Source of the DNA: Amoeboaphelidium occidentale
Taxonomy: Eukaryota; Aphelidiomycota; Aphelidea
NCBI GenBank assembly: GCA_023515795.1
Contig: JALGPX010000002.1
Location: 47,337-111,336, forward strand
Length of the DNA: 64,000 nucleotides
Direction: 5' to 3'
The position numbers were made by a program, and so were the translations under genes. Below the pieces are notes generated by a model. It was given only the letters and a program-made list of their open reading frames with translations, was not told where the DNA came from and did no database searches. Each line of letters starts with the position of its first letter. The stretch's first letter is position 1. Shown piece after piece: positions 43,737-61,900 of this stretch.

Positions 43737-44691
43737 ATGTTACTTAACGTGTTGATACTAAACTTATTGGCTCTTGGCATTAACTGCTGGGGATTCCTTG
43801 GTATGATATGCCATGTGATCAGGTGATATCTAATCATGTGTAGGTCATCAGATCACAGCAGCTGTAGCTCAGCATTACCTCAAGCCGTCTGTTCAGGATG
43901 ATATTGTGAAGCTTCTCAGGGGGAAGACAATTGTTGAAGTCGCAACATGGGCAGACACGATCAAGCGCGATCGCAAATACTCCTTCTCCAGGACTTTGCA
44001 TTACTCTAATCCAAAGACAAATGAGCCGTATACTTGTGGCTATGACTACAGAAGAGATTGTCCTGATGCCAAGTGTGTTGTTGGTGCTATTCACAACTAC
44101 ACTGATCGTGCAGTTACTGATAGTGCAAGAGCTGACCGCGAAGATGCTCTAAAGTTTCTTGTTCATTACATTGGCGATATTCATCAGCCACTTCATTTGT
44201 CTGGCAGAGAACGCGGTGGTAATAATGCGCGCTGTACATTCTTTGGAGCTAAAGCGAATCTGCATTTTGTTTGGGACTCCATGCTATTGGAAAAGCGTTA
44301 TAAGACGGATTTTGGGAAGGATTTCGATTCTTTTGTTGAGTATCTAATTGAACAGATTGAAGGGGACTGGCAAGATGATGCAGACTTATGGACAAGCTGC
44401 AGTAAATCTGAATCTTTTGGGTTTGTGCAACAAGCAGCTGATGAGGTTTCTCGTGTATTTAATTTGAAGGAAAGTGATGCTACAGCTGCTAAGAAAAAGA
44501 AGTTCCAATTGTGTCCTGAGTTATGGGCAAAGCAGTCGAATAAGTTGGACTGCACTAATGTATGGCGTGGCTTTGAAGAAGATATGGACATTGGTGAAGA
44601 GTATTATAATGACAATATTGAAGCTGTTGAAAGGCAGTTGGCTGCAGGCGGTGTTCGTCTAGCTTACGTGCTTAATTCTATATTTGCGTAA
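43737..44691 (+). CDS. Secreted S1/P1 nuclease
   Basis: Exons 43737-43800 and 43844-44691 (intron 43 nt; 303 aa). Signal peptide MLLNVLILNLLALGIN is followed by C and the mature WGFLGHQITAAVAQHYLKP; in the family the N-terminal Trp itself binds zinc. The remaining trinuclear zinc ligands are present: VATWADTIK, LHYSN, DALKFLVHYIGDIHQPLH and LHFVWD. These enzymes degrade single-stranded nucleic acids and remove 3' phosphates, usually for phosphate or nucleoside scavenging outside the cell or in lysosome-like vacuoles. Length (~300) is normal. Confidence 0.95.
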
Positions 44692-44792
44692 TTGCGTATT
44701 GTTAGAATAGAAAAAGGGTTAAATGTGAGAGTGACAAGATCGTTGTTTCGGAGCATCAGGAACTTTGTTTCAGAGGTGATCAAATCAGTATC

Positions 44793-45570
44793 ATGAGCGA
44801 TCCCAAAGATTCAGGATGTGAAGTAATATCATAATAATGACATTGACTGTTTGTAGATGATGGATACTTTTGCCATAGTGTTACAAGGATTTCTTGCCAT
44901 TATTGCTCTGAGCACATTGTATTTTAAAAGATATAAGGAAAAGCCAAAGAGACCATTTAATATATGGCTGTTTGATGCAGCAAAGCAAGCATCTGGAGCC
45001 TTTGTTGTTCACATGCTCAATGTGCTAATATCATACATATTTGGGGGAGTATCAGAGCACACAAAGAATCCTTGTGTATTCTACTTTATCAATGTTCTAT
45101 TGGATACAACTGTGGCTGTATTCATACTATTCTTCTTCTTAAGGCTCATGGACAGAATTGTTTCTTACTATGATGTATCAGGTCATTCTAGCTAGATAAT
45201 GATTATGATTAACATTCTAGACATGCAAAGTGGTGTTTACGGACAACCACCTCAGTTACGAATATGGCTGAAACAAACCTGTGGATTCATAGCTTGCCTA
45301 TTCGCTACAAAAATCGTAGTGATCATCTTGTTACAGTTCGATTTTCTCACAGCTATCGGAGCATTCTTCGTTCTTCCCATCACAGACCCTCGCGCACAAT
45401 TAGTCGTGGTGATGCTTCTGTTTCCTTTAGTCATGAACATATTTCAATTCTGGTTGGTGGATAGTTACATTAGAAATAAGTTGCATGATGTACCCAGAGA
45501 CAATTCATCATCATCAGAAGTCTATGAAGCACTTCGAAGCGCAGACGAAGAAGAAGCAATACGGCTGTGA
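44793..45570 (+). CDS. STIMATE/TMEM110-like ER membrane protein
   Basis: Exons 44793-44822, 44857-45181, 45221-45570 (introns 34 and 39 nt; 234 aa). Splicing joins MSDPKDSGCE to MMDTFAIVLQGFLAIIALST, then KRPFNIWLFDAAKQASGAFV, CVFYFINVLLDTTVAVF, and LKQTCGFIACLFATKIVV. This matches animal STIMATE, a multi-span ER protein that supports STIM-ORAI junctions, and fungal vacuolar relatives. Four or five spans are seen. The second donor (GTCATT) is the only non-GTA/GTT/GTG donor used in the window, but its acceptor and frame fit well. Confidence 0.88.
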
Positions 45571-45661
45571 ATAAAATAAGTTCTTGCGGAGTAGAAAGAT
45601 CTTTGATTTAGATTTCGGTTGTTCGTCCTTTTGATCATTCCACGTATTTGCGCGAACAGCC

Positions 45662-46675
45662 ATGCCAATAACCAACGTGTTAGAGTCAGCTCAGTTCATC
45701 AACAAAAACAGTGTAGACGTGAGCGTACCCGAAGAAGGGGTCAAGAAAGCTGCGAAATTTATGAGTAAACTTATGAAGGACGCAAATTATTCGTGTAAGC
45801 AATGGAAGGATCATCCATTGCACCCAAAGGAAGAGAATGAAGAGGTACTCAAATGGATATTCCTAATTGATTTGTTAAACTTCTCATTCTACTCGAATTT
45901 AAGTGAGGCAGACAGATACGCTGTGGAATACAAAGGCCAGAGATGGACAGGATATTCTGCATTATGCGCCGCTGTTAATCGCGCTCTGGACGAGGGCATT
46001 CCCTTCACTGAACCAAAATTCTTTGCTGTAATATCAGAGCAGCAGTTGAGACATATTTTTAGAGGTGTTCCGGAAGCTAAGGAAGAGTTACCTTTGCTTA
46101 ACGAAAGACTTCGTGTTATGCATGAAGCTGGTGCCATTCTTTTGGAAAAGTTTAATGGTTCTTATGAAACTCTCATTAATATGGCTGATAAGAGTGTCAT
46201 GACTTTGCTCAAGCTGGTCGTTAGCAACTTTGAATGCTTCAGAGATGAGTGCATGGTCAAAGATAGAACAGTTTCGTTCTACAAGCGGGCGCAGATCCTC
46301 ATTGCGGACACATGGGCCTGTTTTCAAGGAACTTCATATGGCGAGTTTAGAGATATCGAGTGCTTGACAATGTTTGCAGATTACCGTGTCCCTCAAGCAT
46401 TATGCGCTGTTGGGATCCTACAATACTCTGATACTTTGAAAGCTCGCTTAAAAGACTCAAGCCATGAATTTAAATCAGGTTCTCGAGAAGAAGTTGAGAT
46501 AAGAGGAAACTCTATTTACGCAGTTGAACTTTTGAGACAAGAAATTAAAAGACTGGAGCCTGACATGCAAATTAACTCCGTACTGCTCGATTTTGCTTTG
46601 TATGACTACGCTAAAGCACGATCTGAGGAGCTCAAGGATATTCCGATACACAAAGTACGCAGTGTCAACTACTGA
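45662..46675 (+). CDS. QNG1: Queuosine 5'-phosphate N-glycosylase (Qng1, DUF2419)
   Basis: 337 aa, intronless. Family blocks visible: VLKWIFLIDLLNFSFYSN, YKGQRWTGYSALCAAVNRAL, FRDECMVKDRTVSFYKRAQI, LIADTWACFQG and LTMFADYRVPQALCAVGILQ. The enzyme frees queuine from queuosine 5'-phosphate so that eukaryotes can re-use the base for tRNA G34 modification. Its presence implies salvage from food, host or turnover of bacterial material and predicts a eukaryotic TGT elsewhere. Length is normal for the family. Confidence 0.95.
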   Translation: MPITNVLESAQFINKNSVDVSVPEEGVKKAAKFMSKLMKDANYSCKQWKDHPLHPKEENEEVLKWIFLIDLLNFSFYSNLSEADRYAVEYKGQRWTGYSALCAAVNRALDEGIPFTEPKFFAVISEQQLRHIFRGVPEAKEELPLLNERLRVMHEAGAILLEKFNGSYETLINMADKSVMTLLKLVVSNFECFRDECMVKDRTVSFYKRAQILIADTWACFQGTSYGEFRDIECLTMFADYRVPQALCAVGILQYSDTLKARLKDSSHEFKSGSREEVEIRGNSIYAVELLRQEIKRLEPDMQINSVLLDFALYDYAKARSEELKDIPIHKVRSVNY

Positions 46676-46845
46676 TTGCTCATTGGTTGGCGTCTTCTGG
46701 ACAATCAATCAGTAGCTGAGTTATGATTCGTCCTTTTCTCTTGGTTCAATCCGTGTTCATTGGTTACTGATAACGCACAGCCGAAATCAAACACGATAAA
46801 AAGAAGGGATAGATTGTGCATGTTTAATCACCCATTAGAATAGAA

Positions 46846-49140
46846 ATGATGCACAAACTGCACAAGGTCATACTATTAAGCATTCTCAACATTGGATGTT
46901 CTTTAACTCAAATCACACATACTGGCACCGCGACTGGAACTGTTACAGGTATTAATGGCGCTGGTACATTCACAGGAACCGGTACTGCAACCGGAACAGG
47001 CTTAAGTCCTGTTTATTCTGGCACATACACATCCACTGGCACTGTTACTGGGGTTGCACCTGTTGCGAATTGTGATGTTGCTTATGTGGAAGACACAATT
47101 TATGAAGATGATGTGTGTGTTGAAGATACTTATGATTACGTTGTCGAAGACATTCCTCTTACTCCTGGTTACATTTCAGATCCTTTACAAACTCAATCTA
47201 CAATTTTATACTTGCTACAAGAACTTATAATCAGACGCGACAAATTGGTTGATGCATATTTGAATATTGGTGGCGATCCTACAGTTTTGCAAGGCATGTA
47301 CGGCATTGGAACTGAATGCAATTTGTTCCCTTATGAAGATTATGCTGTTGCTGGTCCTGTTGTTTGCGACGAAGGCAGTCTTGTTCCTGATGTTATTGTC
47401 GATAATGTTCAAGTTGTTCCTGAAGTTGTCTATGATGATTTCTATGCTGTTCCTGATGTGGCATACACAGATTACGCTGTTCCTCTACTTGCTCCAATTG
47501 ATGAAGTTGTTTCTTACGATACTGTTTATGATGTTCCTATTGCTGTTCCACAAGTCTGCGAAGATGTTATTGAAGACACAATAATTCAAGAAGATCCTAA
47601 TTTTGTGGCTTTCAATGATGGAAATGGAATCTATTTGGGAGACGGAAATGCAAATGAAGACGACTTGTTCCAAATCGGCGATAATACCTGCATTTGCATG
47701 AGCGAAGAGGTGATGCAGAACTTTATTGCTTCTGATGTATATTCAACTTTGTCTGATCGTGGAATCACTGGTAATCCTCTCCTTTCTCTAGCTGGCGGCC
47801 AACAAGTCAATTTGAACGGTGATTGCAACGGTTTCTTCAACCTTGGAAGTCAAGAATGTATCTGCTATGGTAATGATGTGCTCACCAACTTACCAGCTCC
47901 TGTTGAAGAGTGCGAATTCAGATTCGACTATCCAAACATTCAGACTCCAAGAAAGCCTTCTCTTCCTGCTCCAGTTTCTCCTCCTAAAGAAGAAGTTTGT
48001 GAAAAGCCAACTGAAAAGTATGTTCAGGGCCCTGCTCCTGCTCCTGCTCCAGTACCATCTCCAAAAGAGGAAGTTTGCGAAGAGCCTGTTCAAAAGCCTG
48101 TCAAAACTCCTGTCAAACATCCAAAGCAACCTGTTCAAGAGAAACCAAAGCAACCTGTCCCAGTTTATCCAAAAGCCCCTTCTCCAGCCCCAGCTCCAAA
48201 GAAAGACATTCCTTGCGAAGAAGAGAAGAAGAAGCCTTTGATGAAGAAAAAGAAGGTCTTGATCCCAAAGAAAACTGCTCCAGCTCCAGCCCCACAGGAA
48301 ACTCAACCAACAAAAGATGCTACGACCCCAGCACCTAAACCATCTCAACCTAAGGTCAAAAAGGAATTAGTTCCAAAGAAGCCAACTCCAGCAGAAGAAT
48401 GCGTAGTACCAAAGGAACCTCAAGCAAATCCAGGTTCAAAGAAGCCAACACCAATGAAGAAAAAGAAGGTGGCAATTCCAAAACCTGCTCCTACAGAATG
48501 TGTTGAAAAAGAAGCTCCTGTCAAGCCTGGCCCAGCTCCAACCAAGATGAAAAAGAAGATTGCTGCACCAAAGCCAGATAATAAGCCTTCGAAGCCTTCA
48601 AAGCCTGTTGAGACTCCTTGCACTATACGCGATTTGAAGAAGAAAGGTCAAGAAAACACTGCAAAGAAAGCAGCACCTGCTCCAGCACCAGTTCAGCCTG
48701 TTCCTTCAAGAAAAAGCGTCGCACCTCCTATTGTGAAGAAGAAGCCAGAAGAAGTTTGTGTTGAGACTCCAGCTGTTCCTTCTCGTCCAGGAAATACTCC
48801 ATCAAAGCCTGTCGCAACTCCTTCTTACCCAAAACCTGGATCTGGCGTTCCAAGCAAGCCTCCAGCAAAGAAGGAAGAAGTTTGCGTAGACAAACCAAAG
48901 ACTCCAGCACCTGTCTATCCAAAACCAGGACCTGATGTTCCTAGCAAGCCACCAGGAAAAGCCGAAGAGAAATGCGAAGATCCATCAAAGACACCGACCT
49001 CTCAACCTCCAAAGTCACCAACCTCTACATCTCCAGAGTCACCAGGAAAACCTGAAGACAAGCCATGCGATGCAGACTCAATTCAAAAGGAAGCTATTCA
49101 ACTTTTCATGAAGGAGAAGGCTACCTCTACAAAACATTAA
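46846..49140 (+). CDS. Large secreted Thr/Gly then Pro/Lys/Cys-rich wall-like protein
   Basis: 764 aa, no intron. Signal peptide MMHKLHKVILLSILNIGCSL, then a Thr-Gly dipeptide tract (~25-65), an acidic Cys/Tyr/Val-rich stretch (CDVAYVEDTIYEDDVCVEDT onwards) to ~250, a region with CICMSEEVMQNF and ECICYGNDVL (~280-350), and from ~375 to the end a long Pro/Lys/Ala-rich tail with regularly placed Cys in EEVCE-type motifs and K-rich patches (LMKKKKVLIPKK). No known family is recognised. The composition suggests a cross-linked extracellular, cyst or spore wall component. The DCD-Tyr module is also found in the gene at 54730-57924. AATAAA follows the stop closely. Confidence 0.7.
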   Translation: MMHKLHKVILLSILNIGCSLTQITHTGTATGTVTGINGAGTFTGTGTATGTGLSPVYSGTYTSTGTVTGVAPVANCDVAYVEDTIYEDDVCVEDTYDYVVEDIPLTPGYISDPLQTQSTILYLLQELIIRRDKLVDAYLNIGGDPTVLQGMYGIGTECNLFPYEDYAVAGPVVCDEGSLVPDVIVDNVQVVPEVVYDDFYAVPDVAYTDYAVPLLAPIDEVVSYDTVYDVPIAVPQVCEDVIEDTIIQEDPNFVAFNDGNGIYLGDGNANEDDLFQIGDNTCICMSEEVMQNFIASDVYSTLSDRGITGNPLLSLAGGQQVNLNGDCNGFFNLGSQECICYGNDVLTNLPAPVEECEFRFDYPNIQTPRKPSLPAPVSPPKEEVCEKPTEKYVQGPAPAPAPVPSPKEEVCEEPVQKPVKTPVKHPKQPVQEKPKQPVPVYPKAPSPAPAPKKDIPCEEEKKKPLMKKKKVLIPKKTAPAPAPQETQPTKDATTPAPKPSQPKVKKELVPKKPTPAEECVVPKEPQANPGSKKPTPMKKKKVAIPKPAPTECVEKEAPVKPGPAPTKMKKKIAAPKPDNKPSKPSKPVETPCTIRDLKKKGQENTAKKAAPAPAPVQPVPSRKSVAPPIVKKKPEEVCVETPAVPSRPGNTPSKPVATPSYPKPGSGVPSKPPAKKEEVCVDKPKTPAPVYPKPGPDVPSKPPGKAEEKCEDPSKTPTSQPPKSPTSTSPESPGKPEDKPCDADSIQKEAIQLFMKEKATSTKH
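46915..47060 (+). repeat. Thr-Gly dipeptide-encoding repeat
   Basis: The coding sequence repeats ACTGGNACN-type units giving a Thr-Gly tract (TGTATGTVTG, GTGTATGTG, STGTVTG). A short version (VTGTATGST) is encoded near 55150-55180 on the minus strand in the third gene of this cluster. Confidence 0.7.
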
Positions 49141-49219
49141 TAGGAATTTACAAAGTCAAATTACGGATCCAAAAATAAATCTTAATTAAATTTAACTTCA
49201 AATCGTTCTACTTAGCAAA

Positions 49220-49912
49220 ATGTATGACTGGGGTGCAGTGTTAGAAGAAGATCTGGTGTATACTGTAAGACCCAGCTTCGAGAATCCTCTGCATATGATC
49301 ATACAGCAAAGTTCCGATGATGGAAATGTCAAGATCGCTACATGCTTCCATAAAGATCGAAGCATCATAATTTCTGATGCATTTGGGAGGTTCAGTGACT
49401 CTATTGATGGCGAATCTACTTTGGCTAAATTGGATACAAGTTCTACAGACGGTACCAAGATTAAGTCGCAGGTGTGTGATAATATCAAGATCCAAGTCAA
49501 TATGGTATCAAGCACTGGCCCAGAACTTCTATTAGAATCTCCTCAAGACGAAGAACCACGCTTTCCTATTAAAGTCAGGAAATCATCATTCTTGTCGAGA
49601 AATGTGTTCGCAAAACCTTGTACAGATGATCAAGCATCGGATAATGTCATGTTCCAGATTTCTGGAGGAAGGTCAGGTAATTTAAGGATCAAGAAAGGAA
49701 CTCCGATGAAGCTCATCCCTGCGATATTTGCTTCGTGGAGATTGTACCTCAGATGTCTCAGAATCTTTGTGATGTCTTTGTTCATAATTGATGCGATTCT
49801 CATAGCGAGTCTTTTGTACGCGACTTATCTCACTGGTAATCAGCTTTTCTTTGGCGTTCTGGTTGCTGTGCACTTCGTATATGTATGTGTTGCGTTCTTA
49901 CTTCTAGTTTAG
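49220..49912 (+). CDS. Putative membrane protein of unknown family
   Basis: 230 aa, intronless. The first ~165 residues are soluble with mixed strands and several Ser/Asp-rich loops (ESPQDEEPRFPIKVRKSSFL); the last ~55 hold two closely spaced membrane spans (RIFVMSLFIIDAILIASLLY and FFGVLVAVHFVYVCVAFLLL) and the protein ends in the second. No signal peptide and no recognised domain. It sits between two large secreted wall-like genes on the same strand, 79 nt after the first, so co-regulation with them is possible but unproven. Confidence 0.55.
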   Translation: MYDWGAVLEEDLVYTVRPSFENPLHMIIQQSSDDGNVKIATCFHKDRSIIISDAFGRFSDSIDGESTLAKLDTSSTDGTKIKSQVCDNIKIQVNMVSSTGPELLLESPQDEEPRFPIKVRKSSFLSRNVFAKPCTDDQASDNVMFQISGGRSGNLRIKKGTPMKLIPAIFASWRLYLRCLRIFVMSLFIIDAILIASLLYATYLTGNQLFFGVLVAVHFVYVCVAFLLLV

Positions 49913-49934
49913 CTTCATGAAGCTGAAAGATTTC

Positions 49935-49940
49935 AATAAA
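49935..49940 (+). terminator. AATAAA poly(A) signal
   Basis: AATAAA 22 nt after the stop of the small membrane protein gene, in the usual position for a short 3' UTR in this window. Confidence 0.5.
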
Positions 49941-50176
49941 CATCAATGGGCCATACCACTAATTTTCATGAATTGCATTAAGTATTCACTTGTTTAGACA
50001 AGCCTATGCGTTAGTTATAGTCTAGGCTCCCGTTGTATGCTCACGAAATCGGTCTGTAGCCGTTGATTGGTTCTTGTTTCAAGTTTCAACCATTACCCTA
50101 GTAAGATAATGGAAGTTCATAATGGGCTGTTCGATGGACTAAAGATTCTTTTTCAAAACATAATACACCAAGTAGA

Positions 50177-53100
50177 ATGCTATCCGAGCTCGTAAAGAAG
50201 CCGCGTAGCTACCTCAGTATCTTACTGCTTGCTGGATACGTAACGTGCCAAGTGCCAGCGTATGGACAGCCACTTGCTCAACTGGTCCCGGCTCCTTCTA
50301 ATCCTGCATTACCAATTGGATCTACACTTCAAAATTATCCACCTGTTGGCGCACCACAGCAGCCTGGTGCCGTTGCTCAACAGCCTGAAACGCCAAAATG
50401 CGATCAGTNNNNNNNNNNNNNNNNNCAGCCACTTGCTCAACTGGTCCCGGCTCCTTCTAATCCTGCATTACCAATTGGATCTACACATCAAAATTATCCA
50501 CCTGTTGGCGCACCACAGCAGCCTGGTGCCGTTGCTCAACAGCCTGAAACGCCAAAATGCGATCAGTGTGGTTCTCTCATATGCAGTTGTTATCCAGTTG
50601 AAAACCTTCCTCAAAATCTTACTAAACCAGTACCTCAAGTACCAGTTGTTCCTCCACAGGGTGCAATTGACGACAAGACTCCTATAAGTCCTCCACTTAC
50701 AAATTTAGACACGCCTGAACGCCCACAAACTCCCCAAGTTCCTCCACAGGTTCCTACTTATCCTCCATCTCAACCTTTGGTTCCAAATACAGTGCCTGCT
50801 TGCTCACAACTTACTCCAGAATGCAACACTTGCATGTTGGGTGGTGATTGCTCGAGATGCGATATTAGAGTTGTCGCAGCTGCATTGAAACAATGTTGTG
50901 GTGCAGTTGCAGTTCCTGTTGTACCTCCAGCTGGAACTCAAGACCAGAAACATCCTACCATTCCTTCACCAGTTATTTCAATTGTTCCAGTTGTGAGCGT
51001 TCCTCCAGCTGGAATCAAGGAAGTTGTTCAGAGTCCTGTGTTCGTTCCGGTCCCAGTTTACGTTCCGCAACCAGTCTTCAAGCCTCCATCTCAGCCTGTT
51101 CCACAACCGCAGCCGCAACCGCAGCCGCAACTGCAACCTGTCCCTCCACAAGCACAATTGCAGGTTCCTCCTCCTCCTGTTCAACCACCACCTCCACCTC
51201 CTGCTCCTATTGTTCCAATTAATCCACAGGGCGTCGACGAAATCACTCCACAACAGCCAGCTCAAACATGTGCGGTCCCGCAGCAAGTCATCCCGCCTGT
51301 TTATCCTGCTATCCCTCAAGGTGTTAATGAAATCAAATCTCCTGTTCCGAACTTTGTCAATCAACAAAGACGGGATATCCAACCTTCTCCTATTGTTCCA
51401 AGCACTTGCACAGCTTGCTTGCTTCCACCATGCATAGGGCAGTCAGTTGCCAATGGAGCAATGCCTGCAGGCTCCTCCAATGTTACAGGAAGATGTTTGA
51501 GAGACCCTGATGAAGTTGAACGTTTGAACTCTGCAAATCCTAAATGTCCTCAGATGTGCTACTCCGTTCCAGTTCCTCCTCAAGGCGCTCAAGATGTTAA
51601 GCCTCCAGCAGTGCAATCTCCACAAGTACCTCAGCCTCAACCACAACCGCATCAGCCTCAGCCACAACCTCAACCTCAGCCTCAACCTGTTGTTCAGATT
51701 CCATCACCGCAAGTTATTACTCATACGGTTGTACAACAGCATGTCGTACCTGTGATCCAGACTCCTGTGGCTCCGGTTTACCCAGCTATTAACATCACAC
51801 TGCCAGTTCAGCCTCCGAGTGGAAATCAAGAGGAGTGCAACAAAACGGTTCCTATGAAGCCTCCTGTCTACCCTGCTGTACCAGGTCAACCAATCCAGGT
51901 GCCTCATGCTACTCCTGTTTATCCTCAAATGCCTTCACAAGATCAATTTATTCCAGGTACCCAGCAACCTTCTGGTCCGAAAGAAAATGTTCCTGTTTAT
52001 CCTTTGCCTCCAGTACAACATCCTGCTCCGAAGCATCCATCCGGTGTTTCTGACGAGACTTGCACTGCTCTAGTGAATGGCACAAACAATGTTCCACAGC
52101 ATCCTCAAGCTCCACAGCCTATTGGTCCTCAACCGCCATCAAGTAATAACGATGCACCCCAACCAATTGGTCCAAATCCAAAACAACCTGAAGCACCACA
52201 GCAACCAATAGTTCCATCTCCAGGCGGTAACCCAGTTGTGCATCCACCAACTACGGGTACAGTTCCTCCTCCTGTGGTTGCAGAGAAGCCATGCAATGAT
52301 TCAATCCATGCTCCTCCTAACGTTCCTAAGTTGCCTCAGCTACCTCCAACTCAGCCACAAATCCCTCCAACCCAACCACAAGTGCCTCCAACCCAACCAC
52401 AGGTACCTCCTCCAGGCTCTATCCCTCATCCACCGTCTTCCAACATCGATACTCCTCCTTTGCACTGCAACACTACATCGCCAACAAACAACACAGTTCA
52501 CCCGCCAGCTCAACCTCCAGCTAATCCACCTTCCCCGAACATTGATGTGCCAGTTACACCACCATCACATCCAACTAATCCAGTCACCAACACTACTGTT
52601 CCTCCAACCACTGGGGCTAACGAAACTTGCTCAGATGTGAAGACACCTCATGCTGGNCGTCTTCCAACATCGATACTCCTCCTTTGCACTGCAACACTAC
52701 ATCGCCAACAAACAACACAGTTCACCCGCCAGCTCAACCACCAGCTCAACCTCCAGCTAATCCACCTTCCCCGAACATTGATGTGCCAGTTACACCACCA
52801 TCACATCCAACTAATTCAGTCACCAACACTACTGTTCCTCCAACCACTGGGGCTAACGAAACTTGCTCAGATGTGAAGACACCTCATGCTGGTTGTATTC
52901 CTGGAGTTAATTGTCCACCTGATTTACAGACTCCTCCTCCAGCACACAATATCACTGCTCCTCCTGCGAAGAACATTACCGATAATGTTCCAGATCCTAA
53001 AAAGCCTGAAGAATGCCATAAGGAAGGTACCAACACTACTGAACCTGCTCCAGAATCTCCAAAAGAACAGAAGAAAGTACCGAAAGTAACTCCAACGCCT

Positions 53101-54333
53101 TCAAAGAAGAACGAGACGGAACCTGAACTTCCAGATGAGCCTATCAAAGAAGCTCCAACTCCTACATCGAAGAATTCCACAAAAACGAAGACAAAGATAA
53201 CAGCTTCATCCGCAAAGGCTTTCCCTACTCCAACTGAGGCTAAAGATGTTCCAAAAGACAAAGAACCAGACTTATCCAAGGATCCAGAAAATGTCACAAA
53301 GAAAGATAACTCCACCAAAGTTACCACGAAAAAGACAAAAATCTCAAAGAAGCCTACTCCTTCAGTAACGAAGACGAAGATTCAGGAAACTGATGCACCA
53401 TCCAAAGATAAACCAGAGCCAGAGAAGCCTAAGGAACCATCGATGGAGAAGAAGGACGAAGATAAGCCAAAAGACGAGAAGAAAGAGGACAAGCCAAAGG
53501 AACCATCGATGGAGAAGAAGGACGAAGATAAGCCAAAGGAACCAACAGAGAAGAAGAAAGACGAAGACCAGCCAACAAAGACTCCAGAGAAAGAAACACC
53601 TCTTTCACCAGTTCCATCAACTCCAACACAAGGATCTAATGAAACATGCACAAAGGAAATGATTGTTGAATGCTCTAAAGCTTGCAGTCCATTTGATAGC
53701 CAATGTTTCTTGAGTTGCTGCGATACTTGTGTTCCAAGCAAATCCTGCACGCCTGAGATTGTCGCCAACTGTTCAATGGCTTGTGCCAATGCCGAGGACA
53801 AGTTATCCGCTGACAAGTGTTATGAAGAGTGCGCGAAAGGCTGTGGTGAGTTGATAAAGATCCCACTAGAGGATGAACCATGCGTTGAAGAACCTCCTGT
53901 CACTCCATCAACCGACAGCTGTCATCACGAGTATTTATCTTTGTGTTCTAAGGGCTGCAAGAAGGATGATTTGGCATGTTTCTTAGAATGCGCTAAACCT
54001 TGCCATTACGAGTCAAATCCTGCCTGCTCAGCTGAAGTCATTTCTCAATGCACACAGAGATGTGCTTGCGAGGCTCCTGGTGATCTAAAATGCATCAAGC
54101 AATGTGTTCTTGGCTGCAAAGAATTGGACTTTGATATTCAAGTCACTGACACGGGGTCGGTTCACAGTTCCCAACCACTCGTGGAGAGTATAACGGAGAA
54201 ATTTGTTGCAAACCCGGAGAAATGCACTACATGCGAAACAAAGCCAGCAAAGAAGAACAAGAAGAAACTTCCAGTTCTGCCTCCAACAGCATCTTGCACG
54301 AAATGTGAGGAAAAGAAGATCAAGACCAAATAA
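50177..54333 (+). CDS. Giant secreted Pro-rich protein with four C-terminal 6-Cys repeats
   Basis: One gene of roughly 1250 aa once two assembly duplications are allowed for. The N-terminus has a signal-like span (YLSILLLAGYVTCQVPAYG). A very long Pro/Gln/Val-rich stalk follows, punctuated by short Cys motifs (CDQCGSLICSC, CNTCMLGGDCSRC, CTACLLPPC) and by recurring P-x-G-x-x-(D/E) steps, some ending in ETC. Then a Lys/Glu/Pro-rich charged segment (~53000-53600) and, at 53647-54117, four tandem C-X7-C-X3-C-Xn-C-X3-C-X3-C modules, then a short basic tail (CTTCETKPAKKNKKKL, CTKCEEKKIKTK). No family recognised. The frame changes from 50177-52656 to 52658-54333 only because a 223-nt segment is duplicated around an N. 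Probable extracellular, wall or adhesion structure. Confidence 0.65.
50267..50567. repeat. Assembly gap (17 N) between two near-identical 142-nt copies
   Basis: Bases 50409-50425 are N. The 142 nt before them (50267-50408) and the 142 nt after (50426-50567) differ at one base (tctacacttc versus tctacacatc). Such end-overlap around a gap is what a scaffolder leaves when it fails to merge overlapping contigs. Confidence 0.85.
52434..52892. repeat. Assembly join (single N) between 223- and 235-nt copies
   Basis: A lone N at 52657 separates copies 52434-52656 and 52658-52892. The second has 12 extra bases (one more Pro-Ala-Gln-Pro unit) and one C/T change. Removing 224 nt shifts frame by two, exactly the difference between the two open frames, so the join explains the frame break. 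Confidence 0.85.
53647..54117 (+). repeat. Four tandem six-cysteine modules
   Basis: Modules at 53647-53730, 53746-53844, 53920-54003 and 54025-54117 each read C-X7-C-[ST]XX-C-Xn-C-XXX-C-XXX-C with n of 6, 11, 6 and 9. The first X7 has a conserved Glu at position 3 (TKEMIVE, TPEIVAN, HHEYLSL, SAEVISQ). CxxxC pairs facing each other on two helices suggest a disulfide-pinned helical hairpin. The DNA copies have diverged, so this is old protein-level repetition. Confidence 0.85.
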
Positions 54334-54729
54334 TTTACACCTTAGACCCTGACTTACAATCTATTTCGACCACTTAACGTTTTAACAATAAAGTTGCATA
54401 AGAAATTAGTTATCAGATCCATGAAAAGATTGTTCCAGAAAAAAACTGTTGCGCTTTTCTAGCAAAACTTAAACGATATCAATCGAGGGATGACATATGC
54501 GTGTTTCGTGTAGATTAAATCTTGGTGCACAAATTCTTGTGAAACGAGTCTTGCTACAGAAAGGAAGAGTGAATTTCCACCAAGATAAATTTTTCCATGT
54601 AACCATATCGAAGGAATTCGAGTGAACCACACAAGTAACAACATATAGCTATCATAAAGATAATTTGAAATTTCTAAGTTTTACGAGAATTTATTGAGTT
54701 AAGATATCTGTGCTTTCTCGAAGTGATCA
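54334..54729. other. Convergent intergenic region
   Basis: About 400 nt between two stop codons. It holds an AATAAA (54387-54392) for the plus-strand gene and otherwise AT-rich sequence; the 61-codon minus frame inside (54459-54644) has no supporting feature. Confidence 0.45.
54387..54392 (+). terminator. AATAAA poly(A) signal
   Basis: AATAAA 53 nt downstream of the stop of the giant Pro-rich gene. Confidence 0.45.
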
Positions 54730-57700
54730 CTAGCATATTGCTGCATTTCTTGGAGCTCCGTGAACTGGAGCAGTTTTCTTGGCTGGATAAACAATCTTAC
54801 CACCCTTCTTTGGCATTTTCTTTGCCTTGTTAGTATTCACCAAGTTTTGCAATGGACTTTTCGGAACATTTTTTGCATGCTTAGGTTTCGGATCTTCGCA
54901 TTTCTTTGTAGTTTTAGCCTTAATGAGGTTGAGGAGATTTTGTTTTGCAGCACATTTAGCACAATCTGACTTACCCTTTTGTTCTTTGTTTCCAAATCCT
55001 AATCTCTTCTTGATCAAGTCCAACAGAGATGATGATTGTGAGTTGCATGAGCATGACTCTTTTTGGCTTGTAGCAGCAAGTTTGTCTGTAAGGGAAGTAG
55101 AAGATCCAGAGGCGGTAGTAGTAGAAGTTGCAAGGCGATTCAATAATGAAGTGCTTCCTGTTGCTGTACCTGTGACAGAACTAGTTCCAACGGCAACAGA
55201 GCCGGGGCTTATGACAGGAGTGACGGGCGCAGAAACGACAGCAGGAGCAACAACACCAACAGCAGGAATGTCTTGATCATAATAAACATACTCATACTGA
55301 GGATCGCAAACATCACCGCCGGCATAGGTAGATCCCCCGTATGCAATATCAGCGGTAACTGGCACTGCACAATCATCAGCAGTATCAGCAATGATAGAGC
55401 GCCCGCCGATCATGTCGCCGCCATACATGTCACCACCACCATACATATCACCGCCCATAGAGCCATATTCTGCTCCAGCATAGCTTGATCCCATGTAAGA
55501 AGATGACCCCATGTAAGATGATGATCCCATATAGGACGAAGATCCCATATATCCTGAAGCGCCGCAACTATAACCACTGTCGTACCCATAACTACCAAGT
55601 CCTCCGCCATAACTAGCGGAATACCCGCCGTAGAGGCCTCCAACGTAATCTGGACCGTAAATGGTACTTTGGTAACCAAGCATTGGACTAACATCGTATG
55701 TGTTGATGTAATCGACATAGGTAGCTGGAATAGCTGGAACAGCAGCGATAGCACCAACAGTGCCGACTGCTCCAACTGCTCCAACAGTACCGCCAGTGGA
55801 AACGGTGCTCTGGGAACCCGAGATGCCCTTGGTCAAAGCCAACTTCAACAAGTCATCCAAATCACAGTTATCATCTTTCTTTTCTTTCTTGCAGTCATCG
55901 CCGCTCTGGCCACCGTTTCCGCCATTTCCGTCATTTGGATTCTGTGAGGAGTCCTTTGGATATGGTGCTGGGTGAACATTTTGATCTCCATCGGTATTCT
56001 TTGGCATTTTCGAAGGAGTTTCATGACCTTTCTTTGGATACTGTGAACCATCTTGTGGATACGAAGGAAATTTCTTTGGATACTTTGGACCATTCGGTTG
56101 AGTAGAGTCTGAAGGTGTAGGGTAAACATCAGCGGGAGCTTTTGGAGTATCTCCACTGCTTGATTCTGTTGGAACAGGATAAGTACCATTAGAATCAGGT
56201 GGAGTGGTTTCAGTTGGACCAGAACCAGAGCCGGAACCAGGATTGAGATTGTAAGGAGAATTCGGAGTTGGATATAATCCTGAGTCGTTTGGTTCCGCAG
56301 TTGTAGGATATATACCAGAAGGCTCTGTAGCAGTAGGATTTGGTGGGTAAATATCTCCTGGTGGCATCTTTGGACCCTTTGGTGTTTTCGGGGAATTGTC
56401 GCCATTTTTTGGAAAGCCGCCATCATTCGGAGGATTGCCATCTTTCTTGCCAGGTCGATTTCCATCATTAGGAGGGCTACCACCTTTTGGAAGAGGGTAA
56501 ATGTCATCATCATTAGGAGATTTTCCATTTCCAGGAGGATTTCCGCCTTTTGGTGGAGAGTCTCCATCCTTCTTAGGTGGACTTCCACCAGATGGAGGAC
56601 TATCGCCCTTCTTCGGTGGATTCTTGTCATTGTTTGGTGGATTCTTGTCATTCTTTGGTGGGTTCTTATCATTCTTTGGAGGATTTTTATCGTTCGGTCC
56701 AGGGCTTCCATCATCTTTAGGATTCTTGCCACCAGGAGGATTATTGTTACCCGGTGGATTATTGTTCTTACCAGGAGGAGAATCACCGCCTTTACCAGGA
56801 CCATTAGGAGATTTGTCGTCGTCATTAGGAGGTGTTTTGGGATTCTTGTCATCAGGACCATCATTTTCACCAGGAGATTTAGGATTCTTTGGTTCATCAG
56901 GCTTACCGGGCTTATCTCCATCGTTTTTAGGATTTTTATCATCATCAGTCGGAAGTTTCTTCTTCTTCTTGGTAGTTTTAGTGACAACTTTTTTCTTGTT
57001 GTTAGTATCATTTTTCTTGTTGGTAGTAGCAGCTCCAGCACTTGATGAAGACGCAGCTGCTTTCTTGGTTTCTTTCTTTGTGACAGAATCAGGTGTAGAA
57101 GTTGAATTGCTCTTACGGCCTGAACGCTCATCGGAAGAGTCAGATTCTTCTTTCGCCTTTTCTTTGTCCTTGCTGGAACTTGAAGTATCAGATTTCGCAT
57201 CGTTCGATTCCGGTGATGGAACAGGTGACGGTTTTGTCTCAATATTGTAAATCGGGGTAGTTTCTTTCTTTTCGGGAGTTTCATTGGACTTTTTTGAATC
57301 GGCCTCGGACTTGTTATCAGGCTTGTCTGATGGAGTAGAAGCGCGACCACTTTCTTTTGATTTTGTAGATTTGCGTGCTGGTTTTGATGTCTTCAGAATG
57401 CTATCAACCACAGAAGTATTATTCCTATCTTTTGAAAGTTCCAAGTAAGCTGCACTAACAGCTGAGCGAATGGTTGGCTCGAGATCTTTTCCTTCACGAG
57501 TTGAGCGAGCAACAGGATCAACAAAGGATGTCAGAATGGAGGAATTAGTACCGGTAACTCCACGAATAGCAGCATTCACGGCCTCCAATATGGTGCTATT
57601 GTTCTTCGATTTTGAGGCAGACTTAAGAATGATTTCCGCAGTTCTGTTGAAATCCATCTTTGCTAGCTCTGCATTCTTTTGTGCACCAACAGCATCTCCA

Positions 57701-57924
57701 GCCAATATCGAATTGATCAAGTAACGTAGCTGTTCATTTGAGACCTTAGAAGGTGCAGCAGATTTCTTCAACTCAGCATCATTACGTTTGTGTATATCAG
57801 TATTCCATTCACGAGCTGCATACAATGTTAGAAAGGGTTGAAACGGTGTGGATTCCTTACCTTGTCCATATGGAGCAAAAGCTGTGCATATAACGAGCAT
57901 ACACGCTACAGCTCTGAAAAGCAT
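54730..57924 (-). CDS. Giant secreted Gly/Pro/Asn/Lys-rich wall-like protein
   Basis: 1064 aa, no intron. Signal peptide MLFRAVACMLVICTAFAPYG; a helical, possibly folded N-terminal ~180 residues (SNEQLRYLINSILAGDAVGA, repeated NNSTILEAVNAAIRGV-like helices with N-glycosylation sequons); a Lys/Ser/Glu linker; a ~400-residue Pro/Gly/Asp/Asn/Lys tract with tandem NDKNPPK units; a Tyr/Gly/Ser tract with four YMGSSS repeats; an acidic Cys/Tyr module (DVCDPQYEYVYYDQDIPAV); a Thr-Gly piece; and a C-terminal part with Cys pairs (CSCNSQ, CAKCAAK) and Lys-rich ends. No known family. The module and Thr-Gly piece are shared with the gene at 46846, so the two are likely related. Probably extracellular and cross-linked through Tyr or Cys. 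Confidence 0.7.
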   Translation of the reverse strand: MLFRAVACMLVICTAFAPYGQGKESTPFQPFLTLYAAREWNTDIHKRNDAELKKSAAPSKVSNEQLRYLINSILAGDAVGAQKNAELAKMDFNRTAEIILKSASKSKNNSTILEAVNAAIRGVTGTNSSILTSFVDPVARSTREGKDLEPTIRSAVSAAYLELSKDRNNTSVVDSILKTSKPARKSTKSKESGRASTPSDKPDNKSEADSKKSNETPEKKETTPIYNIETKPSPVPSPESNDAKSDTSSSSKDKEKAKEESDSSDERSGRKSNSTSTPDSVTKKETKKAAASSSSAGAATTNKKNDTNNKKKVVTKTTKKKKKLPTDDDKNPKNDGDKPGKPDEPKNPKSPGENDGPDDKNPKTPPNDDDKSPNGPGKGGDSPPGKNNNPPGNNNPPGGKNPKDDGSPGPNDKNPPKNDKNPPKNDKNPPNNDKNPPKKGDSPPSGGSPPKKDGDSPPKGGNPPGNGKSPNDDDIYPLPKGGSPPNDGNRPGKKDGNPPNDGGFPKNGDNSPKTPKGPKMPPGDIYPPNPTATEPSGIYPTTAEPNDSGLYPTPNSPYNLNPGSGSGSGPTETTPPDSNGTYPVPTESSSGDTPKAPADVYPTPSDSTQPNGPKYPKKFPSYPQDGSQYPKKGHETPSKMPKNTDGDQNVHPAPYPKDSSQNPNDGNGGNGGQSGDDCKKEKKDDNCDLDDLLKLALTKGISGSQSTVSTGGTVGAVGAVGTVGAIAAVPAIPATYVDYINTYDVSPMLGYQSTIYGPDYVGGLYGGYSASYGGGLGSYGYDSGYSCGASGYMGSSSYMGSSSYMGSSSYMGSSYAGAEYGSMGGDMYGGGDMYGGDMIGGRSIIADTADDCAVPVTADIAYGGSTYAGGDVCDPQYEYVYYDQDIPAVGVVAPAVVSAPVTPVISPGSVAVGTSSVTGTATGSTSLLNRLATSTTTASGSSTSLTDKLAATSQKESCSCNSQSSSLLDLIKKRLGFGNKEQKGKSDCAKCAAKQNLLNLIKAKTTKKCEDPKPKHAKNVPKSPLQNLVNTNKAKKMPKKGGKIVYPAKKTAPVHGAPRNAAIC
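55487..55560 (-). repeat. YMGSSS tandem repeat
   Basis: Four consecutive ~18-nt units encode YMGSSS, YMGSSS, YMGSSS and YMGSSY on the minus strand, following a GYG-rich stretch. Confidence 0.8.
56611..56697 (-). repeat. 21-nt tandem repeat encoding NDKNPPK
   Basis: Four near-identical 21-nt units encode (P)KNDKNPP-type heptads within a longer Pro/Asp/Asn/Lys tract. The units are similar at DNA level, so recent expansion or contraction is likely. Confidence 0.8.
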
Positions 57925-58474
57925 AGCGGTAGTAGATTATGGAAAACGAAAAAACTATACACGAACAATGGAATACTTATACGAGACGGTAATGCGTAAT
58001 GGGAACCTCCATTATCGAGATCGTTGAATCCAATCAAACGTCGCCAAACCTCCGGCACTAAACCAACCAGGATCAAGCAACATTGTTAGTGTAATGGAGC
58101 ATTTAGTGCAGGGGAAATATCGCAAATTATCGCTAGCCTGGAGCATCTGGTGCAATAGCTTGATTACGACTTGTTTTGCGTTCAATGAGGTCTAACTATG
58201 TGTTGCATCGTTAGATTCAAGACTCAACTTCATCGATAATCTGGTCAACGAAACTCTTTAAGGGTTTCTTACGAGTTTCAGAGGTCGTCATTATGCAGGC
58301 CTGGAATGAACATCGTTGCCTTTAAGTTACAGCGTGTGGAAGACAAATAAGAACACAAGATGAAACCCAACGCTATCATAAATCGATCCCCCTAGATAGC
58401 CCTCCATTATTCCGCCTTTAGCATCGCATTAAACGGTCAGGAAAGACCTATCCTTCTTTTTTCTTGAAAGCTCG
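57925..58474. promoter_or_regulatory. Divergent intergenic region, wall-like gene (-) and prefoldin 4 (+)
   Basis: 550 nt, the largest gap in the window. A 24-codon minus-strand frame at 58217-58291 is present but unsupported. No tRNA, snRNA or repeat is recognised. The minus-strand part should carry the promoter of the wall-like gene. Confidence 0.4.
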
Positions 58475-58948
58475 ATGGACGCCGTGAAACTTATGAAACC
58501 TGGCGAGGACGCCGATATTGAAGTGGGCTGGGAGGACCAGAATAAAATCAACAAGTTTTCCAACTTGAATGTGCGCATGTCTGAACTTGAAGAGCGCGTT
58601 GTTCATCTCAAGCGGGCCATTGAGGAAATACAAGACGCAGAAAACGAACTTGAACTTGTATTGAGCGATGATGAATTGGAGGATGAATTCGCTGATGTTG
58701 CCCTCGAAGAGAAGAAGAATGGCAGAAAAGCTTTTAATGTCGGCGTGCCATTGCTAATTGGAGACTGTTTCGTGAATTTTGATCTTGAGGGCGCTAAGGA
58801 ACGCCTCAGCCAAATGAAGGCCGAAAAGAATAATAACATGGATGCCCTCAAGAAAGAAATGGGTTCTATTGATAAGGAAATGGGAGAATTGAAGTCATCC
58901 TTGTACAAGCGGTTCGGCAACTCCATTCAGCTGGAACGTGAGCTTTGA
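58475..58948 (+). CDS. PFD4: Prefoldin subunit 4
   Basis: 157 aa, intronless. Beta-type prefoldin: N-terminal helix with WEDQNKINKFSNLNVRMSEL, a central beta-hairpin part (VPLLIGDCFVNFDLEGAKER) and a C-terminal helix ending LYKRFGNSIQLEREL. These are the hallmarks of PFDN4/Gim3. The hexamer passes nascent actin and tubulin to CCT. A Lys-rich loop of about 15 residues precedes the hairpin and is longer than in animals. AATAAA follows 9 nt after the stop; the WDR7 stop is 33 nt away. Confidence 0.93.
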   Translation: MDAVKLMKPGEDADIEVGWEDQNKINKFSNLNVRMSELEERVVHLKRAIEEIQDAENELELVLSDDELEDEFADVALEEKKNGRKAFNVGVPLLIGDCFVNFDLEGAKERLSQMKAEKNNNMDALKKEMGSIDKEMGELKSSLYKRFGNSIQLEREL

Positions 58949-58957
58949 TATCCGCAA

Positions 58958-58963
58958 AATAAA
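58958..58963 (+). terminator. AATAAA poly(A) signal of prefoldin 4
   Basis: AATAAA 9 nt after the TGA. The convergent WDR7 stop lies 18 nt further on, so 3' UTRs must overlap. Confidence 0.5.
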
Positions 58964-58981
58964 GCATGCATGTAAATTTCA

Positions 58982-61900
58982 TTAGAAATTAAACGTCAAA
59001 GAAGGAAGAGGTTCAGTTCTTTTGAGCGTCACTGTACGATCTCCAAGCCATTCAAACCTCACCTCTTGCAAGATTGAAATCGCAGACTGGTAACTCAGTC
59101 GTCGCTTCCCAAAGAAATCATTCTGTTCGCCGTGTACACCGTCTACTTGAAAAGTCCTAAATAGTCTTAAAGAACCTGTGGCTCCGGCAGCTAATGTTCC
59201 AAGAAAGCCTTCAGAGCGATTATCTGAGCTTGATGAATGCCTTGTAACAGCATGAAAGGATGAAGATAATGCAGAGAAAATATTCGAATAAGGATGCCAC
59301 ACCTTCACACAACGTTCTTCAATAGAGTACGAAACCAACAAAAGCTCGTAATCTTTGGTGTTTTTCTTTGGAGAGGAAGCTATTTCGGTATTCAAAGATG
59401 ATGCAGGCTTGTTGAATGACACAGCATTAATGCTATGAGTTCCATGAGCATCGAGTATCTGGACCCTTGTCGCTGTCTTTAGGTCCCAAAATATGATTTG
59501 TCCGCCAGGATGACCATTGTGACTTGAAATGTTTGATTTGCCGACGTTTGCATTATCGCTCGCAGTTGCTATTGCAAGCCTTTGTGATAGTGCATGAAAG
59601 GAAATGGTGGGATAGATTCTAACAAATTCGTGAATGATATTTGTTACCACAGGGGAAATTCTTTCTCTAACTGTAAATGGAATGTTGGGATCCAAACAAC
59701 CTTTGATTATGGCCTCTAAAATACCAGGAAGGTAATGCGGAAAGAAGCTTATTGGTCTCTAACAATTAAGGCATTAAACAATAATGCGGTATTACCTGTT
59801 TTGCTACCATTAAGACACCAGCTCTTAACAGTATTTTTGTCCGTTCCCAATCCGAGTCTTTCATACCTGCGTTTAACAGTTCCGTTGAAAGTAGATTAAC
59901 ATAAGTTGTAGGGTCAGTCTGACAGATTGATATCACAGCTTGTCTACACGCAAATACCATTTGTCGTCTCTCAACAGCAAACTTTTCTTCTGGTTCATCG
60001 GGATAACTATTATAAGTGAATACGGATCTGAACGAAGATTTCTTTCTGAATGCAGCCAAATGCTTCTTCCATTCCTCCAACACTAGATTTTCAGCTTTTC
60101 CAACTGTTCGCTCAGGATCAAACATGAACTCAAATATATCTTTTTCATGCAATTGAACCTTCTGTTTATCTGCAATGTGTTCAGAACTTGAATCTCTTGT
60201 TTCTTTTGATGAGCTTATCGCAGCATGACTCCACAATTTCCGCATGACATATACCTGCAAAGGCAATGCTGCTGTGGGTGTATTAGATGGTATTGCTAAA
60301 GTAGGAGCAGGTTTTGATAAGTGAGGAATTTTTAAGTCCAAAACCGTAAGGCCTTGAAATGCCGGAGAAAAGCAATCCCAGTTGTTAGCAAGAATTTCAG
60401 CAGCAAGTAGTTTTAAAGTGTTCAGAACAGAAGCACTATCTGTTCCTGGGTCCGGTGTTGAGAGAAGCAGAGCCAGTGAAAGCAAAAGCTCGCGAATGAG
60501 TTTTGGACCGATCATAATAGGACCAGCACCATTTTTGATTTCTAACTGAACTGTTCCTTCATTAAGATCGACAGTTGGACCTTTCACAGATCCAACGGGA
60601 GGTATTAAAGTGGACAGAAGTATGCAAGACCGAATAGTTTGGTCATGAAACTGCGCAGAAGCAAAATCTCTGTTGATCGTTGGTAAAGTTTTCATCCACC
60701 TGTCGATAAAAACCTTCAAGTCTGACAATTGAATGCGTCTGATAAAGCTAGAAATCAGTATTCGAGCTGATATTTGTGCCTCTGCCTCAGAATCATGATA
60801 GAAATGTGCGAATAACGACAATGCAGGCGCAACTGCTTGTTCAACTTTGGAGAGGTCATCGAATAAGTCTGTACTAATATATGCAATCCAATTAAGATTG
60901 ACTTGTTCAGAAAGGGAATCAAAGCGCATCAGCTTCTTGAACAATATCATTAAAGCCATAAGCATGCTTGCGGTTTGTTGTTTTGAAATGGACCACATGA
61001 AAAGTCTACGCTTCTTAAGATCATCCACGAGTTTAAAGTATGTAATATCGTTCAACATCAAACCCAATGAGCAATCAATAGACTTGATACCTATAGAGTG
61101 AACGCTATCGTCCAATTCTTTGCGAAGTTCCAATGGAGCTAACGCGGAAAGTAGCCCCTTGAGAAGATCAGTTGTAGTTGAGCCAAGAGGACTATTGCAG
61201 ACATCCGTGTTATGTTTCAGCTTTTTTAAATCAATCTCAGCATTCATAACTACATTATTTAGCTCACAACTGAGAACATCTTTCGTTTGTTGTTTCTCAT
61301 CAATGCTTACTAAAGTAGCCTGTATGGAATCTACTGGTTTACGCAGCTGCCATTCTTTCAAGTCTTTCTTTTCAAAAACGCATTCTCCGCCATTCCTTCT
61401 CAAAAGCCATCCCGCAAAAGTTTTTAGTCCCATTAGATAAACGTAAACTCCTTCAGAGTCTTCGGCAGTGGGCACAAACAGAACAACCTTGATGATAGAA
61501 TCATTTTGATCTAAGCCAGATAAAAACCATCCAATTCGCCCTTGCTCCCAACTTAAAATAGACAAGCTAGAGCCATTAGAGGTTAGAACATAAAGCGATC
61601 GAAATAGGGTGGCCACAATACTAGATATTACAGAATGCTCGTCTATAGACCCTCGCCTTTGTTTCAAAGGATGCTTCTTTGTGTATCTAAAATTAGGAGC
61701 CCAAGTAGAAAATTTCGAAATGGTGCCGTCTGGTACCGATAAGTTGTCCTTGCTATTGGTCTCCTTCATTATTTTGGCCGAAACTGTTCCAACAGATTTC
61801 TTCGTGCTATCTTGTTCATTCATCACTTTTTTATACTCTGAATGCACAGGTTCGTGTAAACTCTTGAGACTGAAAGGATGTGCATGAAATACTCGTAATG

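What the first reader, a model, noticed from the sequence alone, without database searches (positions are those of the whole stretch)
46846..57924. Block of three giant secreted low-complexity proteins: candidate wall or matrix system
Three intronless genes of 764, about 1250 and 1064 residues, all with signal peptides, occupy 11 kb in a genome where nearly everything else is housekeeping and compact. They are rich in Pro, Thr, Gly, Lys, Tyr and spaced Cys, and I recognise no named family. A small two-span membrane protein lies among them. The clustering suggests one extracellular structure (cyst, spore or cell wall, or an adhesive layer) built from co-expressed parts.
Basis: partly seen in the sequence, partly recalled or inferred. 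Interest (0 to 1): 0.78.

Follow-up and report, generated by a model that had tools for sequence, protein, structure and literature searches.

The report
Three orphan secreted, cross-linkable wall proteins
A small flagellated fungus-like organism carries, side by side, three very large, probably secreted proteins without detected relatives that look like ingredients of a hardened outer layer, perhaps glued together by oxidised tyrosines and disulfide bonds.

Summary
In detail: three long intronless ORFs (764, about 1,250, 1,064 residues) with signal-peptide-like starts lie in 11 kb. The middle one is broken in the assembly at two N gaps flanked by near-identical repeats. None matches Pfam; database searches of parts of two of them found no homologue; none has a detected paralogue in its 11.3 Mb genome. 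That genome is fungal by eEF2 and chitin synthases and probably flagellate (IFT46); the species was not identified. (1) In their Pro-rich parts all three have Tyr followed by Pro more often than composition gives. (2) All three lean, moderately, towards the codons of highly expressed genes; the small membrane protein between them does not. (3) The genome has about ten tyrosinase genes; the four read have secretion-like starts, and beside one an adjoining tail carries repeated Val/Ile-Tyr-Pro. Best explanation: a secreted protein matrix (wall of a cyst, spore, sporangium or infection tube) hardened by tyrosine oxidation and disulfides. Secretion, expression, cross-linking and location are inferred, not shown. 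Rivals: a polar-tube-like sheath, an adhesive coat, or unrelated low-complexity neighbours in a genome whose tyrosinases only make melanin.

The parts
46846..49140 (+). g1, 764 aa: hydrophobic start; acidic Tyr/Cys half (residues about 20-360, pI 4.05); basic Pro/Lys half (361-764, pI 9.67) with ten evenly spaced, acid-tagged Cys and four Tyr-Pro
   Evidence: no Pfam; only itself in the genome
49220..49912 (+). 230-aa ORF with two C-terminal membrane spans; probably a bystander
   Evidence: codon rank 11-44 of 100
50177..52656 (+). g2, 5' piece: hydrophobic start, Pro/Gln/Val repeats with PPxGxx[DE] units, Tyr-Pro, Cys clusters
50409..50425 (.). 17-N assembly gap between near-identical 142-bp flanks (50267-50408 and 50426-50567)
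52657..52657 (.). single-N gap with frame break, between flanks 94.5% alike (52434-52656 and 52658-52892)
52660..54333 (+). g2, 3' piece: Pro/Thr then Lys/Glu-rich, ending in Cys modules; no Tyr-Pro
53647..54117 (+). four modules C-x7-C-x3-C-x(6-11)-C-x3-C-x3-C
   Evidence: modelled as helical hairpins at low confidence, pLDDT 60
54730..57924 (-). g3, 1,064 aa: hydrophobic start, then charge blocks
57355..57858 (-). g3 residues about 23-190: basic, predicted helical but unreliable (pLDDT 47.5)
55855..57354 (-). g3 residues about 191-690: Pro/Lys/Gly/Asn/Asp spacer with ten Tyr-Pro
55075..55854 (-). g3 residues about 691-950: acidic Gly/Ser/Tyr-rich block (pI 4.05)
54733..55074 (-). g3 residues about 951-1064: basic tail (pI 10.07) with CxC, CxxC and a C-terminal Cys

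Best explanation
The three genes encode secreted structural proteins of one extracellular layer of a flagellated fungus-like organism, most likely the wall of a cyst, resting spore, sporangium or infection tube. Each combines Pro-rich extended spacers, blocks of opposite charge and reactive residues. After secretion they associate, partly by charge, and are locked in two ways: disulfides (lone Cys of g1, Cys modules of g2) and oxidation of Tyr in Tyr-Pro sites by secreted tyrosinases to quinones that couple to Lys, Cys or Tyr. Shown: ORFs, composition, motif enrichment, no detected paralogue, moderate codon bias, tyrosinase genes. Inferred: secretion, joint high expression, assembly, both kinds of cross-link, location.
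For: Tyr-Pro in the Pro-rich parts: 4 of 5 Tyr (g1), 9 of 12 (g2 5' piece), 10 of 12 (g3); block shuffles reach this in 34, 1 and 0 of 2,000. Outside the cluster 55 of 1,501 Tyr precede Pro. Codon ranks after correction for amino acids: g1 97, g2 pieces 89-92, g3 87-94 of 100 background ORFs. Even, acid-tagged Cys in g1 (spacing as even in 2 of 10,000). Opposite charge blocks. Four six-Cys modules in g2. Twelve tyrosinase matches at ten places; four read, all with hydrophobic starts and the domain at E<=4e-32; an ORF adjoining one of them carries four [VI]YP. 3 of the 4 signal-plus-Pro-rich ORFs in the sample lie here.
Against: No expression, proteomic or chemical data. No homologue, so no conservation test. 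No trained signal-peptide predictor. The codon bias is moderate (0.09-0.20 against 0.52-0.72 for eEF2 and RPLP0) and g3 falls just under the 90th percentile with eEF2 alone. g2's 3' piece has no Tyr-Pro; the acid tag on Cys is not significant in g2 or g3. No shared upstream word. Two of the four tyrosinases have low codon rank (4-17 of 100). The tail Tyr-Pro beside the tyrosinase lies beyond an assembly gap and was not tested against shuffles. Tyrosinases of chytrids have been tied to melanin (PMC3569864 passages).
Confidence: 0.6

Rival explanations
1. Infection-tube sheath proteins that work like microsporidian polar tube proteins: Pro-rich and Lys-rich, Cys-linked secreted proteins encoded together and assembled into a tube for host entry.
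For: PTP1 is Pro-rich (32%) with 13 Cys, PTP2 basic and Lys-rich with 8 conserved Cys, PTP3 over 1,100 aa, and ptp1-ptp2 are clustered (PMC10229552 passages). g1-g3 show similar make-up, size and clustering. Aphelid cysts deliver the parasite through an infection tube (PMC6299283 passages).
Against: IFT46 is present, while filament-bearing relatives lack flagella (PMC5701793 passages). No Pfam match. PTP3 is reported devoid or nearly devoid of Cys, g3 has 13. The host life style is unknown.
Confidence: 0.15
2. A non-covalent adhesive or mucin-like surface coat, or secreted host-contact proteins, rather than a hardened wall.
For: Pro/Thr/Ser/Gly-rich composition and 12-23 N-glycosylation sequons in g3 and the g2 pieces; no membrane anchor evident in g1 or g2 3'.
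Against: Even acid-tagged Cys, Cys modules and Tyr-Pro excess suggest cross-linking; only 12-19% Ser+Thr, low for a mucin.
Confidence: 0.15
3. Unrelated low-complexity secreted proteins that happen to be neighbours, in a genome whose tyrosinases only make melanin.
For: No alignable homology beyond borderline shuffles, no common upstream word, g2 and g3 convergent, no relatives; chytrid tyrosinases are linked by authors to melanin.
Against: The same Tyr-Pro excess in all three, a codon bias shared by all three and rarity of such ORFs in the sample (4 of 103).
Confidence: 0.1

Closest known systems
Microsporidian polar tube proteins PTP1, PTP2, PTP3
   Same: Clustered secreted Pro-rich and Lys-rich proteins with many Cys, plus one over 1,000 aa (PMC10229552 passages).
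   Different: No homology detected; this genome has IFT46, and g3 has 13 Cys where PTP3 has none or two; PTP1 is about 400 aa in Anncaliia.
Quinone-tanned shells (trematode eggshell, squid beak)
   Same: Secreted Tyr-bearing proteins; DOPA oxidised to quinone reacts with Lys or His; tyrosinase involved (PMC11727788 passages).
   Different: Trematode vitelline proteins have 12-15% Tyr; here Tyr is 0.5-4% but placed before Pro. No DOPA has been measured here.
Coccidian oocyst wall proteins (GAM56/82, OWP)
   Same: Tyr-rich and Cys-rich precursors hardened by dityrosine and disulfides (PMC10729351 passages).
   Different: Organism fungal by eEF2 with no AP2 match; no homology found.
Plant extensins
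   Same: Pro-rich secreted wall proteins cross-linked through Tyr (PMC4769139 passages).
   Different: No Ser-Pro3+ repeat in any of the proteins; few Tyr-x-Tyr.
Chytrid CBM18 tyrosinase-like proteins
   Same: Tyrosinase family in zoosporic fungi (PMC3569864, PMC5364385, PMC12204190 passages).
   Different: No chitin-binding domain was reported by Pfam in the four tyrosinases read here; some have Pro/Thr/Ser-rich tails instead.

Membership tests
Microsporidian polar tube proteins | secreted Pro-rich, Cys-bearing proteins encoded in a cluster | tested here: met
   against PMC10229552 passages; signal by hydropathy only; not specific
Microsporidian polar tube proteins | sequence homology to a PTP | tested here: inconclusive
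   0 Pfam families at E<=0.1; I did not check that Pfam holds PTP models, and PTPs are known to escape HMMs
Microsporidian polar tube proteins | host lineage has a polar filament and no flagellum | tested here: not met
   IFT46 present, one gene, indirect; PMC5701793 passages
Plant extensins | repeated Ser-Pro3-5 | tested here: not met
   0 in all pieces
Plant extensins | Tyr-x-Tyr cross-link motifs | tested here: inconclusive
   1 in g1, 3 in g3, 0 in g2
Coccidian oocyst wall proteins | apicomplexan organism | tested here: not met
   no AP2 match; eEF2 nearest to fungal chains
Quinone-tanned protein shells | phenoloxidase (tyrosinase) made by the same organism and secreted | tested here: met
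   12 matches at ten places; four read, hydrophobic starts; secretion inferred
Quinone-tanned protein shells | DOPA or quinone cross-links in the product | not testable with these tools
   needs amino-acid analysis of isolated walls

The most novel reading that the evidence does not exclude
A fungus-like zoosporic organism builds a protein wall by quinone tanning: three dedicated giant proteins carry Tyr-Pro cross-link sites, and secreted tyrosinases, at least one of which may bear the same [VI]YP motif in its own tail, couple them (and perhaps themselves) into the wall. As far as I recall, tanned protein walls are known from flukes, insects and molluscs, not as a wall principle of fungi beside chitin.
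Probability: 0.25. Interest if true: 0.75.

Novelty: new variant of a known kind. Interest (0 to 1): 0.5.

Why it matters
Structural proteins of zoosporic fungi and their relatives are hard to find because they evolve too fast for homology searches. A motif and an enzyme family that go with them would give a way to find such walls without homology, and a testable chemistry for how a compact fungal genome makes a tough cyst, spore or tube.

Tried and rejected
Apicomplexan origin (my first guess): rejected; no AP2 match, eEF2 nearest to fungal PDB chains (only one row is named yeast, the other fungal names are recalled), three strong chitin synthase matches (that Pfam model also rings in 4 of 14 control bacteria/archaea, so only the strong ones count).

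Sanchytrids and the aphelids tabulated in PMC10608142: assembly size, contig number or GC do not fit. The Q_salvage tree groups the window only with an unnamed 94% sequence, inside fungi with weak support. Species not identified; the SSU rRNA search did not complete. TLC transporter: no match, but the control was silent, so absence is not shown.

The two-span membrane protein as a partner: no support (codon rank 11-44 of 100). Shared upstream word: no common 7-mer or 8-mer in 170, 264 and 300 bp. Rfam 44000-60000: 0 matches at gathering score.

Literature: search listings. Searches listed 2 and 1 papers, none by title or abstract on tyrosinase-hardened walls of zoosporic fungi; the library holds open-licence papers only. 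Papers were seen as passages only; none was read whole.
Full report
WHAT IS THERE. Three long ORFs without introns: g1 46846-49140 (+, 764 aa), g2 50177-54333 (+) and g3 54730-57924 (-, 1,064 aa), with a 230-aa ORF at 49220-49912 between g1 and g2. g2 is interrupted by the assembly: 17 N at 50409-50425 and one N at 52657, each between near-identical flanks (142 bp at 99.3%; 235 bp at 94.5%), with a frame break at the second. A gap followed by repeated sequence is also seen at the tyrosinase locus L038.

HOST GENOME. The window lies in an 11.31 Mb, 204-contig genome. Signs of fungal kinship: eEF2 (711 residues of it) scores 1,256-1,269 bits with six PDB chains that include yeast eEF2, against 1,145 for the next (apart from the one named yeast the organisms are recalled); three chitin synthase matches above 750 bits; and Q_salvage, whose best named relatives are early-branching fungi and animals at about 45-53% identity, placed inside fungi with weak support. 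IFT46 is present, so a flagellated stage is likely. No AP2 match; no TLC transporter match, with a silent control. The species was not identified; assembly statistics fit neither the sanchytrids (PMC8371127 passages) nor the aphelids tabulated in PMC10608142.

RARITY. I listed 103 non-overlapping ORFs of at least 250 aa in 264 kb: this window plus twenty 10-kb stretches (three on the same contig, nine on six contigs I knew from the chitin synthase search, eight taken by contig number, so not a random sample). Four combine a hydrophobic start with more than 10% Pro; three are g1, g2 and g3, the fourth is a single-span protein in L022. Three of four within four consecutive ORFs arises in 658 of 200,000 random placements, a post hoc figure.

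ORPHANS WITHOUT DETECTED PARALOGUES. No Pfam family at E<=0.1. In 5.8 billion proteins, g3 residues 1-200 and g2 3' piece residues 320-557 found no relative at E<=1; g1 was not searched there. In the own genome g1, g3 and both g2 pieces find only themselves (the second row is the repeat at the gap); the tool scores only its best candidates. They are not demonstrably related to one another.

DESIGN. g1 has an acidic half (pI 4.05) and a basic Pro/Lys half (pI 9.67). g3 runs basic (9.82), Pro-rich (8.55), acidic Gly/Ser/Tyr-rich (4.05), basic (10.07). g2 begins with Pro/Gln repeats holding PPxGxx[DE] units (5 seen, 0.10 expected), continues Lys/Glu-rich, and ends in four modules C-x7-C-x3-C-x(6-11)-C-x3-C-x3-C with seven invariant columns, modelled as helical hairpins at low confidence. 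In g1's basic half ten Cys are evenly spaced (CV 0.26; as even in 2 of 10,000 random placements) and lie behind acidic residues (10 matches, 2.3 expected, 0 of 2,000 shuffles). That acid tag is not significant in g2 (198 of 2,000 in the 5' piece, 1,152 in the 3' piece) or g3 (829 of 2,000).

THE SHARED MOTIF. In the Pro-rich parts Tyr is followed by Pro in 4 of 5 (g1 residues 361-764), 9 of 12 (g2 5' piece) and 10 of 12 cases (g3 residues 191-690). Shuffles within 60-residue blocks, which keep local composition, give means of 1.35, 3.08 and 2.52 and reach the observed value in 34, 1 and 0 of 2,000. One of g2's nine is a copy in the gap flank; the part of the g2 3' piece tested has no Tyr. Outside the cluster 55 of 1,501 Tyr precede Pro; by number of Tyr-Pro, g3 (11) and g2 (9) rank first and second of 103 ORFs and g1 (4) ties for third with a 1,891-aa protein.

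EXPRESSION LEVEL, BY CODONS. With eEF2, eEF2 plus glutamine synthetase, RPLP0, or eEF2 plus RPLP0 as reference, and corrected for amino-acid content, g1 ranks 97, the g2 pieces 89-92 and g3 87-94 of 100 background ORFs, the 230-aa neighbour 11-44 (uncorrected ranks). The bias is moderate: 0.09-0.20 per codon against 0.52-0.72 for eEF2 and RPLP0. It suggests, but does not show, that all three are made in quantity and that the membrane protein is a bystander.

AN ENZYME THAT FITS. The genome has 12 tyrosinase matches at ten places, three on C11 and two on C177. I read four of the ten (L035-L038): each has a hydrophobic N-terminus and the tyrosinase domain (E<=4e-32), with the copper-binding His pattern as I recall it. 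L037's protein has a Pro/Thr-rich tail with Cys. At L038 an ORF (2412-3527, open at the end of the locus) follows an assembly gap, begins with sequence like the end of the tyrosinase ORF and is probably the same gene; it carries [VI]YPTQ three times and IYPN once. I did not test that against shuffles. Codon ranks of the four are 4-12, 14-17, 58-69 and 85-87 of 100, so not all look highly expressed. In chytrids, tyrosinase domains joined to CBM18 are known and were tied to melanin (PMC3569864, PMC5364385, PMC12204190 passages), so melanin may be their only role here too.

MECHANISM. I propose secretion, association through opposite charges and Pro-rich spacers, disulfide bonding, and oxidation of Tyr in Tyr-Pro sites with coupling to Lys, Cys or Tyr, giving a tough layer beside chitin. 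Quinone tanning is described for trematode eggshells and squid beak (PMC11727788 passages), dityrosine plus disulfide hardening for coccidian oocysts (PMC10729351 passages). Neither link is shown here. I put 0.6 on a cross-linked structural matrix in general and less (0.25, the novel case) on the full tanning scheme.

COMPARISON. In make-up it is nearest to polar tube proteins (PMC10229552 passages) and in proposed chemistry to tanned shells. It is filed under neither: the genome appears flagellate whereas filament-bearing relatives lack flagella (PMC5701793 passages), extensin Ser-Pro3+ repeats are absent, and no homology was found. Aphelids make chitinous infecting cysts with an infection tube (PMC6299283 passages), the sort of structure that could hold such proteins, but the life style of this organism is unknown.

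VERDICT. Observation confirmed; interpretation partly supported and sharpened. New variant of a known kind; interest 0.5.

Noticed in passing
G000 contigs C131, C177, C11, C48, C172, C114, C97 (loci L035-L038 read): Ten places with tyrosinase domains in an 11.3 Mb genome, three on C11 and two on C177, some with Pro/Thr/Ser-rich tails.
   Followed up: partly
50409-50425 and 52657; L038 near 2412: Assembly gaps flanked by repeated sequence, probably unmerged overlaps or haplotypes; they break g2 and perhaps a tyrosinase gene.
   Followed up: partly
18296-19591 (-) and 19710-20807 (+): Divergent pair of ORFs with hydrophobic starts and no Pfam match at E<=0.001.
   Followed up: no
8581-9840 (-): Class III-type glutamine synthetase ORF with the highest codon score of 100 background ORFs; only the part matching residues 315-728 of 3o6x lies in this ORF.
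   Followed up: no
L020:4352-5545 (+): Cys-rich (7%) secreted-looking ORF with an EGF match, a membrane span and an SH3 domain.
   Followed up: no
L022:6628-8484 (-): Hydrophobic start, Pro/Ser-rich ectodomain and one membrane span; the only other signal-plus-Pro-rich ORF in the 264-kb sample.
   Followed up: no
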